Below, in pieces: positions 24,888 to 57,987 of a DNA stretch of 64,000 nt. Under the pieces are notes generated by a model. That model saw only the letters and a program-made list of their open reading frames with translations, was not told where the DNA came from and ran no database searches. The DNA is taken from the IMG/VR virus record IMGVR_UViG_3300030685_000016, positions 62,001 through 126,000 of that record; one strand, given 5' to 3'. Every line of letters begins with the position of its first letter. Position 1 is the first letter of the stretch. The position numbers were made by a program, and so were the translations under genes. Source of the DNA: a virus.

Positions 24888-24930
24888 TATTCATGAGATA
24901 ATGAATTTAATTAGAAAATATGTAAGATCT

Positions 24931-25058
24931 TAAGATAATCAAATGGTTAGTTGAGTCATGCTAGCGACAATAGTACTACCTTGGGCTCGAATGATGAACT
25001 GCAAGTAATAATTCATTAATGTACTGAATAGATACGTAGACATTCAGTGATTATCTTA
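24931..25058 (+). ncRNA. Structured RNA closed by a 10-bp stem
   Basis: TAAGATAATC (24931-24940) and GATTATCTTA (25049-25058) are perfect complements around 108 bases. Inside, ACTGAAT pairs with ATTCAGT near 25023-25047 and AATGA with TCATT around 24991-25017. It lies between the frameshifted gene and the tmRNA region. Confidence 0.5.
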
Positions 25059-25155
25059 ACTTTATTTAAATAAACCTATTTTAGATATGGATAGTATTGT
25101 ATGGTGATCTCCATATTGCCTTAGCAGGCTAATCATACAAGTGTTTATTTTTTTC

Positions 25156-25200
25156 GGGATATGTTTGTGAAACATTAAGAGTTCGAAACTCTGTATCCCA
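25156..25200 (+). tRNA. Minimal D-armless tRNA-like element (GTG)
   Basis: 45 bases: acceptor GGGATAT/GTATCCC, T-arm AGAG-TTCGAAA-CTCT and a central hairpin ATGT-TTGTGAA-ACAT that reads as an anticodon arm GTG (His). There is no room for a D-arm. It could be a decayed tRNA, or a functional reduced form like those of animal mitochondria. Confidence 0.4.
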
Positions 25201-25231
25201 CGATGTTCGTTGATATTTTTAATAAAAATGA

Positions 25232-25262
25232 AGAAGACCCGGCTTCAATGCCGGCAGCTCCA
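25232..25262 (+). ncRNA. ssrA: tmRNA acceptor piece (3' half, encoded first)
   Basis: T-arm CCGGC-TTCAAT-GCCGG (25239-25254) followed by CAGCTCC (25255-25261) and A. CAGCTCCA is the hallmark 3' end of tmRNA; it pairs with GGGGCTG, which is found at 25546, downstream. The order of the two halves is therefore permuted, as in the two-piece tmRNAs known from alphaproteobacteria and some cyanobacteria. Confidence 0.6.
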
Positions 25263-25264
25263 CT

Positions 25265-25355
25265 AAATTCTAAAGTGATCGGAATGGAATTGCACCGATT
25301 TATGCCAGTGCCTTAAGTGTGAAATAACACAGGTTTGGGTGCAGCTTTAGAATTT
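25265..25355 (+). ncRNA. Structured RNA in the tmRNA intervening segment
   Basis: AAATTCTAAAG (25265-25275) pairs perfectly over 11 bp with CTTTAGAATTT (25345-25355). Inside are ATCGG/CCGAT and GTGT/ACAC hairpins. It begins three bases after the tmRNA acceptor end, so it may guide processing of the permuted precursor. Confidence 0.45.
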
Positions 25356-25545
25356 TAAAATTTTCCAAGTAATTGAAAAGTTAGGGGCGTAGATTCCTGC
25401 TTAGGTTATATAGTTATATGTAATCGTCTGCGTCTAAACCTAGAATGCCTGTACCCTTGCATCCATGTTAATTAAATGGAGAAACTCGGATAAGTTCAAC
25501 AGGTATATCATGATATAAAAGGGTAATTGAATAAATGGTACATTC

Positions 25546-25690
25546 GGGGCTGACAGGTTATTGATTCGCATATAATAGACTAATGGAGAACATCAAGCTA
25601 TGTAAATGGCAACAAACAATTCAAAGCTTTTGGAGCTCAACCAGTTAGACTGGCAGCTTAAGCCGTACTTGCCCCACGTTATAGGGGCTA
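25546..25690 (+). ncRNA. ssrA: tmRNA coding piece (5' half with tag)
   Basis: Starts GGGGCTGACAGG, the tmRNA 5' acceptor strand. A tag frame from GGC 25608 reads GNKQFKAFGAQPVRLAA and stops at TAA 25659; the ending LAA before the stop is typical of tmRNA tags. A hairpin GCCCC/GGGGC (about 25670-25688) closes the piece. With the acceptor piece at 25232 it can form the tRNA-like domain. The tag is longer than the bacterial tags I know. Confidence 0.6.
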
Positions 25691-25693
25691 CAT

Positions 25694-25766
25694 GGACTTG
25701 AAGCTAATCTGGTGAAAGCGTGGCCCTGAAGAGGCTGAGAGGTTGGATCAAAACCAACTGAGTCCA
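25694..25766 (+). tRNA. tRNA-Phe (GAA)
   Basis: Anticodon arm TGGCC-CTGAAGA-GGCTG gives GAA. Acceptor GGACTTG/TGAGTCC pairs throughout with wobbles. The T-arm GTTGG-ATCAAAA-CCAAC has an unusual loop (A instead of T at its first position). Confidence 0.6.
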
Positions 25767-29791: not shown

Positions 29792-30101
29792 TTATATTTA
29801 TTTAATAATTTTGATGATTGTATACGTAATCATTTCAATAGTTATTAATACAAAAGAAGCTAGACGTGCTCGGGAAAATCATATTAGGGATTTAGAATAT
29901 CAAATAAAACTTATTAATTTAGTTCGTGTCTTAAATGAGTATAAAGAATTTTTAGAAAAACAATATAATGAAGCAATGAATATTGCAAGTATACATCATT
30001 ATGATTGTACTGAAGAAAATATACAAAAAGGTATACAACTAAGAGAAAAAATTAAAGAATTGGAATTAAAAATATTTGACAATGAACAAAGCAGTAATTG
30101 A
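29784..30101 (+). CDS. Membrane-anchored coiled-coil protein, 105 aa
   Basis: One transmembrane helix (YLIILMIVYVIISIVI) followed by a basic stop (RRAREN) and coiled coil. It overlaps the adenylosuccinate synthetase gene by 20 bases. Bitopic, with the coiled coil inside the cell. Function unknown. Confidence 0.55.
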   Translation: MNSYIYLIILMIVYVIISIVINTKEARRARENHIRDLEYQIKLINLVRVLNEYKEFLEKQYNEAMNIASIHHYDCTEENIQKGIQLREKIKELELKIFDNEQSSN

Positions 30102-31161
30102 TTTAGTATTTGGTGATGGAGGTAAGGGAGTAGTAACTAATTGGTTGGCTATGAAGGATCCTTCTGGTGTAGTTATTCGGTATTCTGGAGGACAGCAAGC
30201 AGGGCATACAGTAGTAAAAGATGGAGTTCACCATGTTTTTTCCAATTTTGGTTCAGGAACTTTAAATGGTAATCCAACTTATTGGTCAGAGTTCTGTACT
30301 GTAGATCCAGTTGGAATTATTAATGAATTAGAATTATTACAGAAAAAAGGATTTACTCCTAATATTATGTATCATTCTAAATGTCCTATTACTACTTCTT
30401 TAGAAAAGAAAAGAAATGAATCCTGCTACCGAGATCATGGTACTTGTGGTGTTGGTGTTGGATTAACTTGGGAGAGGGAATCAAAATTTTATTCATTATT
30501 AATGGAAGATTTATATCATCCAAAAATTTTTGATATAAAGATTAAAATGATTGAAGAATATTATAATGATAAAGTTAGTGATGTTTTTAGATATTGTGTA
30601 GAAAAGCTTATTACGTTATCTAACATTATGATTTATGATGATGCATATAAAAGATATAAAAATAAAATATTTGAAAGTTCCCAGGGTTTATTGTTAGATA
30701 AAGATTATGGATTTTTCCCACATGTAACTCGTTCTAATGTTGGAACTACTAATATTTTATCCATGGCTGATGATATGGAAGTTTTTCTTGTGACCAGGGG
30801 TTATCAAACAAGACATGGTAAAGGTCCGATGACCAATGTTGGACTTCTTCCTACTCTGAATATTAAAAATGTAGAAACTAATGTTTTCAACAAATTTCAA
30901 GGAGAATTTCGTGTATCTTTGTTGGACTTAGATTTATTGAAATATTCTATCGCAAAAGATCCTTATATTAACAAACATAGGGATAATCTCGTAGTAACTT
31001 GTTTAGATCAAATGGAAAATGATTTTAGAGTAACTCATCGAGGAAATATTTCTAATTTTACTGATAAATTAGAATTTGCTTCATTTATTGGTGAAATACT
31101 TGAAGTTTCCAATGTATGGATAAACTGTTCTGAAGAATCTAATCTTGAAAAGGTATATTAA
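30082..31161 (+). CDS. Adenylosuccinate synthetase-like enzyme
   Basis: About 359 residues, shorter than bacterial PurA (~430). Family motifs: FGDGGKGVVTN (GDxGKG, catalytic Asp kept), GGQQAGHTV (general-acid His), HHVFSNFGSG, and VTRGYQTRHGKGP. PurA joins IMP and Asp using GTP, the first step to AMP. Phage PurZ enzymes of the 2-aminoadenine pathway belong to the same family but, in my recollection, lack the first-motif Asp; here it is present, so a PurA-like reaction is more likely. I prefer the ATG at 30082 (MNKAVIDL). Confidence 0.8.
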   Translation: MNKAVIDLVFGDGGKGVVTNWLAMKDPSGVVIRYSGGQQAGHTVVKDGVHHVFSNFGSGTLNGNPTYWSEFCTVDPVGIINELELLQKKGFTPNIMYHSKCPITTSLEKKRNESCYRDHGTCGVGVGLTWERESKFYSLLMEDLYHPKIFDIKIKMIEEYYNDKVSDVFRYCVEKLITLSNIMIYDDAYKRYKNKIFESSQGLLLDKDYGFFPHVTRSNVGTTNILSMADDMEVFLVTRGYQTRHGKGPMTNVGLLPTLNIKNVETNVFNKFQGEFRVSLLDLDLLKYSIAKDPYINKHRDNLVVTCLDQMENDFRVTHRGNISNFTDKLEFASFIGEILEVSNVWINCSEESNLEKVY

Positions 31162-31666: not shown

Positions 31667-31781
31667 TGGGGAAGTAGCCAAATGGATAGGCAATTGAATT
31701 AGGATCAATCAAAAAAATAAGTAATTTTCTAAGTTACTTACAATACCTACAAAAATGTAAGTTCGAATCTTACCTTCCCCA
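31667..31781 (+). tRNA. tRNA-Leu (TAG) with extended variable region
   Basis: Acceptor GGGGAAG/CTTCCCC, anticodon arm ATTGA-ATTAGGA-TCAAT giving TAG, T-arm GTAAG-TTCGAAT-CTTAC. The variable region is over 40 bases and holds the hairpin AAGTAAT/GTTACTT followed by ACAATACC, the motif shared by the elements around the Ro60 gene. Confidence 0.7.
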
Positions 31782-40593: not shown

Positions 40594-40677
40594 GGAAGTA
40601 TGACAGAGTGCTAATGTACCTGACTTGAAATCAGAGGTGCCAGGAATGGTGCGTGGGTTGAACCCCTACTACTTCCT
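40594..40677 (+). tRNA. tRNA-Ser (TGA)
   Basis: Acceptor GGAAGTA/TACTTCC, loop CTTGAAA giving TGA, variable arm GGTGCCAGGAATGGTGC, T-stem GTGGG/CCTAC with loop TTGAACC. A second TGA-reading Ser tRNA besides that at 31883. Confidence 0.7.
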
Positions 40678-44311: not shown

Positions 44312-44389
44312 AGGAATGTATTCCCTCTGCCTGATAAGCAGTAGAAAGGATAATTTGGTTACATATGGGTTCAAGTCCCATCTTTCCTA
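44312..44389 (+). tRNA. tRNA-Ile (GAT) without a D-arm
   Basis: Anticodon arm CTGC-CTGATAA-GCAG gives GAT. T-arm ATGGG-TTCAAGT-CCCAT, acceptor AGGAATG/CTTTCCT with one mismatch. Only eight bases stand where the D-arm belongs, and the variable region is about 23 bases. Confidence 0.5.
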
Positions 44390-57140: not shown

Positions 57141-57409
57141 CGGGAATAGAATTAATTGCACAAGAAAGGCATGAACAAATCTATAAACATGGATGGCCAT
57201 TAGAAAAATATTTGGAAGGTGAATTGATTAAAGGTGCATTATTTGCCATTAATCCAGATGTATTTGAATGGCCTTATTATTGGTTAGAACATTATAGAGA
57301 TAAGATTATCAATAAACCAAACCGAATTGAAAGATTGAAAATAGCTGGAGCATTTATTGCTGCAGAAATTGATAGGATTCAATACGAAGAATCAAATAAT
57401 GAAATATGA
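57137..57409 (+). CDS. Phage NTP-diphosphohydrolase-like protein
   Basis: 90 residues. IELIAQERHEQIYKHGWPLE, GELIKGALFAI, then KPNRIERLKIAGAFIAAEID form the pattern (ERxxQ..KHG, ...aGAxIAAEIDR) of small phage proteins related to MazG-like dATP/dGTP diphosphohydrolases. The acidic metal residues are only partly evident, so activity is uncertain. Confidence 0.5.
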   Translation: MTGIELIAQERHEQIYKHGWPLEKYLEGELIKGALFAINPDVFEWPYYWLEHYRDKIINKPNRIERLKIAGAFIAAEIDRIQYEESNNEI

Positions 57410-57987
57410 TACAAAGAACAGTAGTAGAGAATAGTTCCAAGAATATGGTCATTATGGATGTATTTTCCAAATTGGCACAAGAGAGAATCATCTTTATTGA
57501 TGATGTAATTACTGAAGAATTAGCTAATGGAGTAATTGCTCAGATGTTATATCTAGATTCAGTTGATTCTAAAAAATTTATTAATATTTATATTAATAGT
57601 CCAGGTGGAACAATATTAGATGGATTAGCAATTTATGATGTTTCAAAGATTATTAAATCTCCTATAAGAACTACCTGTATAGGTGGTGCAGAAAGTATGG
57701 GAGCTATTTTAATGTTGATGGGACAGGAGAGGATTGGATTACCTCATTGTAGATTAATGTTACATGAAGCTTCTGGATATATTATAGGTAAAACTGCTTC
57801 AGTTAAAATTGATTTTGAATTACAATTATCTCTTCAGAAGGATATTTTTGACATTGTAAAAGAGCATACTACAATAACTAATATTGATGAGGTTTTGAAA
57901 TTTGATAAATGGTTTAATGCAAAGGAAGCTTTGGAATGTGGACTTTTAACAAAGATTGCATCCTATGTCGAAAAAGATAACGGATAA
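57406..57987 (+). CDS. clpP: ClpP-like serine protease
   Basis: 193 residues, close to bacterial ClpP length. YINSPGGTILDGLAIYD (oxyanion loop), TCIGGAESMGAIL with the catalytic Ser, and PHCRLMLHEASG with the catalytic His. The Asp expected ~50 residues later lies in the KFDKWFNA region. As it stands in the replication block, not beside capsid genes, it may be a host-directed or modified ClpP rather than a head protease. Confidence 0.85.
   Translation: MIQRTVVENSSKNMVIMDVFSKLAQERIIFIDDVITEELANGVIAQMLYLDSVDSKKFINIYINSPGGTILDGLAIYDVSKIIKSPIRTTCIGGAESMGAILMLMGQERIGLPHCRLMLHEASGYIIGKTASVKIDFELQLSLQKDIFDIVKEHTTITNIDEVLKFDKWFNAKEALECGLLTKIASYVEKDNG

What the first reader, a model, noticed from the sequence alone, without database searches (positions are those of the whole stretch)
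25232..25690. Circularly permuted two-piece tmRNA in a phage
The tmRNA 3' end (T-arm, CAGCTCCA) lies 280 bases upstream of the 5' end (GGGGCTGA) and the tag frame GNKQFKAFGAQPVRLAA-stop. GGGGCTG and CAGCTCC form the standard tmRNA acceptor stem with a G-T wobble. The order matches permuted tmRNA genes known from alphaproteobacteria and some cyanobacteria; I know none from Bacteroidota phages. The intervening segment is unusually long and contains its own structured RNA. Phage control of ribosome rescue, with a distinct tag, could redirect stalled-protein degradation, perhaps to the phage ClpP at 57406.
Basis: partly seen in the sequence, partly recalled or inferred. Interest (0 to 1): 0.85.

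Follow-up and report, generated by a model that had tools for sequence, protein, structure and literature searches.

The report
Permuted two-piece tmRNA gene in phage
A large phage, related to the crAss-like phages of gut bacteria, carries a ribosome-rescue RNA gene with its two halves in swapped order, while its closest relatives carry the ordinary order, so this phage line may have rearranged the gene independently.

Summary
Window 25202-25661 (+) is a circularly permuted tmRNA gene. The acceptor piece has a T-arm (CCGGC-TTCAAT-GCCGG) followed by CAGCTCC-A. It lies 283 nt upstream of a coding piece that starts GGGGCTGA and encodes the tag GNKQFKAFGAQPVRLAA. Acceptor stem 7/7 with G3·U70; a 7-bp inter-piece helix (25202-25208/25588-25594) sits where standard tmRNAs pair. 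Rfam tmRNA_permuted spans all of it (40.3 bits, below its cut-off of 47; E 1.8e-6). No 3' half lies within 6 kb downstream. Chance of the upstream half is about 3e-4. ARAGORN misses the gene.

Permuted tmRNAs in phages are known (53 of 133 phage tmRNA structures in one survey); one pattern found 56 more contigs here. New are the setting and likely origin: relatives of this crAss-like-related phage carry standard tmRNAs, one with a group I intron. Acceptor sequence, Gly resume codon and D-loop resemble theirs, not the alanine-tag permuted families. Trees place it with those standard genes, with modest support (AU p 0.013-0.30). Independent permutation is likely but unproven.

The "structured" spacer is not unusually stable (z -1.5). 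No PK1 room, no SmpB or ClpX; the phage encodes ClpP. Evidence is one contig; nothing is shown expressed.

The parts
25202..25262 (+). acceptor piece of the tmRNA, from the H2 strand to A73 (its true 5' end is unknown)
   Evidence: Rfam RF04321 alignment, direct structure scan
25202..25208 (+). H2 strand GATGTTC on the acceptor piece, pairs with 25588-25594
   Evidence: 7 of 7 Watson-Crick pairs; appears in MFE and centroid folds
25239..25254 (+). T-arm CCGGC-TTCAAT-GCCGG, 5-bp stem, 6-nt loop
25255..25262 (+). 3' acceptor strand CAGCTCC plus A73; CCA not encoded (next bases CTA)
   Evidence: 7/7 pairs with GGGGCTG, G3·U70 wobble
25263..25545 (+). intervening segment (283 nt), expected to be removed
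   Evidence: insertion in the RF04321 alignment; fold z -1.49; single copy in the record
25546..25661 (+). coding piece from the 5' acceptor strand GGGGCTG to the tag stop; the 3' end of the piece is unknown, at most 25693
25588..25594 (+). H2 strand GAACATC on the coding piece (nt 43-49)
25608..25661 (+). tag reading frame GNKQFKAFGAQPVRLAA-stop, resume codon GGC after UAAAU
   Evidence: Rfam consensus alignment
25694..25766 (+). tRNA-Phe (anticodon GAA read from the sequence) directly downstream; its RNase P cut would bound the coding piece
   Evidence: Rfam RF00005, 46.3 bits
25156..25200 (+). tRNA-like minihelix ending one base before the H2 strand; possible 5' processing signal, speculative
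   Evidence: 0.7 such elements expected by chance per 172 kb of one strand

Best explanation
This is a phage-encoded, circularly permuted tmRNA gene. One transcript is cut after A25262 (by an RNase Z type enzyme, since CCA is not encoded) and before G25546 (RNase P), the 283-nt spacer is lost, CCA is added, and the two pieces stay together by the acceptor stem and the 25202-25208/25588-25594 helix. The product is charged with alanine through G3·U70, works with host SmpB and frees stalled ribosomes, adding a 17-residue tag ending in LAA that host or phage ClpP can degrade. It most likely descends from the standard tmRNA of the same phage lineage by a permutation separate from those of alpha- and betaproteobacteria and cyanobacteria. 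Shown here: gene layout, complementarity, tag frame, relatives with standard genes. Inferred: expression, processing, charging, function and origin.
For: Full-length RF04321 alignment, 40.3 bits, E 1.8e-6. The only T-arm plus acceptor partner in the window, none downstream, chance 3e-4. Acceptor stem, T-stem and H2 arise in unconstrained MFE and centroid folds. Tag ends LAA and the resume codon follows UAAAU. Phage relatives carry tmRNA genes: LR756500, G008, G032, G035, G037, G046. Shared GGGGCTGACA, TAAATGGCAACAA and CAGCTCCACT with LR756500; tree placement beside standard phage tmRNAs.
Against: Score below the Rfam gathering cut-off; ARAGORN does not find it. 6-nt T-loop, no room for PK1, no pseudoknot shown. 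RF04321 can also score standard tmRNAs above the cut-off. Single contig, no expression data. The origin part depends on 99 alignment columns and becomes undecided without LR756500 (AU 0.30); the acceptor-side motif GTTGA resembles several permuted genes.
Confidence: 0.87

Rival explanations
1. A real permuted tmRNA, but acquired already permuted from a bacterium or another phage of one of the known permuted lineages, and then diverged.
For: Phage permuted tmRNAs are common in aquatic phages (PMC9004378). Helix-GTTGA-21 nt-GAC layout and the short 5' part without PK1 also occur in permuted phage genes such as L122, whose resume codon is at nt 62. Without LR756500 the AU test does not exclude it (p 0.30).
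Against: None of the permuted phage genes compared has the GGGGCTG acceptor or a Gly resume codon (a pattern-selected set); the window groups with standard phage tmRNAs in every tree run; AU p 0.027, 0.052 and 0.013 in the other runs.
Confidence: 0.33
2. A decayed, non-functional tmRNA: a permuted remnant kept by chance in the tRNA-rich region.
For: 6-nt T-loop, missing PK1, no demonstrated pseudoknots, below the Rfam cut-off; low-complexity A/T in the H2 region.
Against: Acceptor stem 7/7, T-stem 5/5, H2 7/7 and an open 17-codon tag ending LAA are all intact; PK1-less spacing is also seen in other permuted phage genes.
Confidence: 0.1
3. An assembly chimera or read misplacement that swapped the halves of a standard tmRNA.
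For: No second contig with the locus was found; the contig with the identical polymerase is only 18.9 kb and does not reach the locus.
Against: Both halves and the spacer are single-copy in the record; flanks run on without a break into tRNA genes and ORFs; no pseudoknot domain of a standard gene is left nearby.
Confidence: 0.04
4. A standard-order tmRNA starting at 25546 whose true 3' half lies downstream; the upstream T-arm is a coincidence.
For: RF04321 can score standard tmRNAs above its cut-off.
Against: No T-arm plus acceptor partner within 6 kb downstream even at 4-bp/6-bp stringency; tRNA-Phe begins 32 bases after the tag stop; joint chance of the upstream T-arm, acceptor and H2 is very small.
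Confidence: 0.02

Closest known systems
Two-piece permuted tmRNA (Rfam RF04321; alpha RF01849, beta RF01850, cyano RF01851)
   Same: Order acceptor piece - spacer - coding piece, acceptor stem and T-arm, inter-piece H2, resume region and alanine-ending tag
   Different: Spacer 283 nt instead of usually 21-45 nt; Gly instead of Ala resume codon; GGGGCTG/CAGCTCC instead of GGGGG(C/T)G acceptor in those compared; 6-nt T-loop; no encoded CCA
Phage Melnitz (MZ577097) permuted tmRNA
   Same: Permuted tmRNA in a lytic phage, spacer also long (142 nt)
   Different: Alpha-type sequence with RF04321 113 bits and tag ANDNYVPVDYALAA; followed by a glutamine riboswitch
Standard tmRNA of huge phage LR756500.1
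   Same: GGGGCTGACA 5' end, TAAATGGCAACAA resume region, CAGCTCCACT 3' end, T-loop TTCAA, tag starting GN, CCA not encoded
   Different: Standard gene order, about 411 nt, tag GNNAEMRMAA, scored end to end by RF00023
Standard tmRNA with group I intron in the T-loop (G008)
   Same: Collinear relative phage (99 shared ORFs), tmRNA in the corresponding RNA-rich region
   Different: Standard order, interrupted by about 850 nt of group I intron; different acceptor sequence

Membership tests
permuted two-piece tmRNA | 3' tRNA-like part encoded upstream of the 5' part, with complementary acceptor strands | tested here: met
   CAGCTCC 25255-25261 pairs 7/7 with GGGGCTG 25546-25552
permuted two-piece tmRNA | T-arm directly before the acceptor 3' strand | tested here: met
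   5-bp stem with TTCAAT loop (6 nt instead of 7)
permuted two-piece tmRNA | Tag reading frame with resume codon, ending in Ala-Ala-stop | tested here: met
   GNKQFKAFGAQPVRLAA-stop, resume GGC after UAAAU
permuted two-piece tmRNA | Score above the RF04321 gathering cut-off (47 bits) | tested here: not met
   40.3 bits, with a 284-nt-class insertion; the cut-off is a curator's threshold, not a structural feature
permuted two-piece tmRNA | G3·U70 alanine identity pair | tested here: met
   From the sequence, G25548 with U25257
permuted two-piece tmRNA | PK1 and PK2 in the coding piece | tested here: inconclusive
   Only 13 nt between H2 and the resume codon, so no room for PK1; a PK2 was not tested. 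Some permuted phage genes have similarly short spacing
permuted two-piece tmRNA | Transcript cut into two mature pieces with CCA added | not testable with these tools
   Needs RNA data
known permuted lineages (alpha, beta, cyano) | Common ancestry with those permuted genes | tested here: inconclusive
   Window groups with phage standard tmRNAs; AU p 0.027, 0.052, 0.013, and 0.30 without LR756500. Beta, cyanobacterial and Bacteroidota host sequences could not be added

The most novel reading that the evidence does not exclude
A separate origin of tmRNA gene permutation (beyond the alpha, beta, cyanobacterial and mitochondrial ones) that happened inside one crAss-like-related phage lineage whose other members keep standard or intron-split tmRNAs.
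Probability: 0.5. Interest if true: 0.72.

Novelty: new variant of a known kind. Interest (0 to 1): 0.55.

Why it matters
Permuted tmRNA genes are described from three main bacterial clades plus mitochondria. A phage group in which related genomes carry standard, group I intron-split and permuted tmRNA would let the rearrangement be studied between related genomes instead of across phyla. ARAGORN does not report this tmRNA, so phage tmRNAs of this sort are probably undercounted. It also puts a phage tmRNA and a phage ClpP in one genome.

Tried and rejected
Group I intron or other known RNA in the spacer: no Rfam match. Spacer as an exceptional structured RNA: z -1.49. Upstream 24906-25204 as a structured pseudoknot domain: z 0.08. 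Standard tmRNA with a downstream 3' half: none within 6 kb. RF04321 score as proof by itself: rejected, since hits at 50-65 bits in L234-L243 look like standard genes. Close relatives of the locus in INPHARED and IMG/VR: none. Coxiellaceae match of the tag pattern (L175): ARAGORN finds no tmRNA there. SmpB or ClpX in the record: none. Bacteroidota -33/-7 promoter motif as host evidence: not enriched. The genome search with RF04321 did not recover the window gene itself, apparently because of the long spacer, so negative results of that search in relatives are weak; a structure scan of seven relative contigs also found no permuted gene, but several of them may not reach the region.

Full report
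What is there. The window is bases 62001-126000 of a 172,188-base IMG/VR virus record with 29% G+C. At 25202-25262 lies an acceptor piece: GATGTTC, C, GTTGA-type spacer, AAGAC, a T-arm CCGGC-TTCAAT-GCCGG, then CAGCTCC and A73. At 25546 the coding piece starts with GGGGCTGA. The resume codon GGC is at 25608 and the tag is GNKQFKAFGAQPVRLAA-stop. The 283 bases in between are the spacer. A tRNA-Phe follows at 25694-25766.

Is it real. Rfam tmRNA_permuted (RF04321) aligns over its whole length with 40.3 bits, E 1.8e-6 for 891 bases, under the curated cut-off of 47. That score is not enough alone: among 200 genomes of one phylum, RF04321 hits of 50-65 bits (L234-L243) look like standard tmRNAs, since no acceptor piece is visible upstream of them. 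I therefore tested the permutation directly. A 5-bp T-stem followed by a 7-nt partner of GGGGCTG occurs once in the window on either strand, at 25239, and nowhere within 6 kb downstream even with relaxed pairing; the chance of one within 700 nt upstream is 3e-4. Unconstrained folding of the precursor gives the acceptor stem, the T-stem and a 7-bp H2 (GATGTTC/GAACATC) in both the MFE and centroid structures. H2 falls at nt 43-49 of the coding piece, where the standard tmRNA of LR756500 has its pairing GCATGC. ARAGORN misses the gene, also when the spacer is shortened, perhaps because of the 6-nt T-loop.

How it compares. Permuted phage tmRNAs are known: a survey found 53 two-piece genes among 133 distinct phage tmRNA structures, nearly all from marine or aquatic samples (PMC9004378). 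One consensus pattern found 56 IMG/VR contigs here; it allowed gaps of 15-45 nt and their spacers are 21-33 nt. Melnitz has 142 nt. Long permuted genes exist elsewhere, one of 1152 bp (PMC11915505). So the kind is known; this is a divergent example with a long spacer, a Gly resume codon, no encoded CCA and no room for PK1. Spacing as short as this before the resume codon is also seen in other permuted phage genes.

Where it comes from. The best named relatives of the DNA polymerase and ribonucleotide reductase are mostly Bacteroides crAss-like phages, and few ORFs have Shine-Dalgarno-like sites; this suggests but does not prove a Bacteroidota host. Relatives found by polymerase were searched for tmRNA. 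G008, collinear with 99 shared ORFs, has a standard tmRNA interrupted in the T-loop by a group I intron. G032, LR756500, G035, G037 and G046 have standard tmRNAs. LR756500 shares GGGGCTGACA, TAAATGGCAACAA and CAGCTCCACT with the window. In a 99-column alignment of tRNA-like and resume regions the window joins LR756500 (UFBoot 78), and forcing it among the known permuted genes is rejected (AU p 0.027). With added bacterial sequences it joins G032 (UFBoot 95, AU 0.052); without the resume region it again joins G032 (UFBoot 88, AU 0.013); without LR756500 the test is undecided (AU 0.30; all). The alignment is short, the sister changes between runs, and the permuted set was selected by a pattern, so a separate permutation is likely, not proven.

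How it probably works (inferred from established tmRNA biology; see PMC3985003). RNase P cuts before 25546, an RNase Z type enzyme after 25262, CCA is added, the pieces stay paired through acceptor stem and H2, and alanine is loaded through G3·U70. SmpB would be the host's, as none is in this partial record. The tag ends in LAA, as Clp-type degrons do. The phage ClpP at 57406-57987 is genuine (Pfam 1.1e-46; closest solved chains are ClpP; Ser, His and Asp of the triad read by eye) and is conserved in relatives, but no ClpX was found, so a phage-specific degradation route remains a guess. A minihelix resembling the upper half of a tRNA ends one base before the acceptor piece (25156-25200) and could be its 5' processing signal; such elements are expected 0.7 times per 172 kb strand by chance.

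Limits. One contig, no reads, no RNA data. The spacer's claimed structure is not significant. No close relative of the locus itself was found, so no covariation test was possible.

Noticed in passing
L103; G008:14783-15992: Standard tmRNA of a related 178-kb phage contig with a roughly 850-nt group I intron in its T-loop (Rfam Intron_gpI 98.5 bits); exon ends give GGCGG-TTCGAAT-CCGCC.
   Followed up: partly
L102 1453-1530 (G031:2852-2929): A 78-nt tmRNA-like gene without tag frame (RF00023 43.3 bits, full model) at the head of a tRNA cluster in a phage contig, reminiscent of the CDS-less tmRNA of phage DS6A mentioned in PMC11915505.
   Followed up: no
window 57406-57987: A ClpP homologue (PF00574, 1.1e-46) kept upstream of the DNA polymerase in all relatives examined; PHROGs labels the family head maturation protease.
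   Followed up: partly
window 30076-31161: Adenylosuccinate synthetase homologue matching phrog_1211 (2-aminooxy adenylosuccinate synthetase, PurZ-like); conserved in G008 and might indicate modified adenine in the phage DNA.
   Followed up: no
L234-L243: Rfam RF04321 (tmRNA_permuted) hits above its cut-off (50-65 bits) in genomes whose tmRNA looks standard; a caution for use of that model alone.
   Followed up: partly
window 31668-31781, 40594-40677, 44312-44389: tRNA genes found by Rfam but not by ARAGORN, one 114 nt long, perhaps with an insertion or long variable arm.
   Followed up: no
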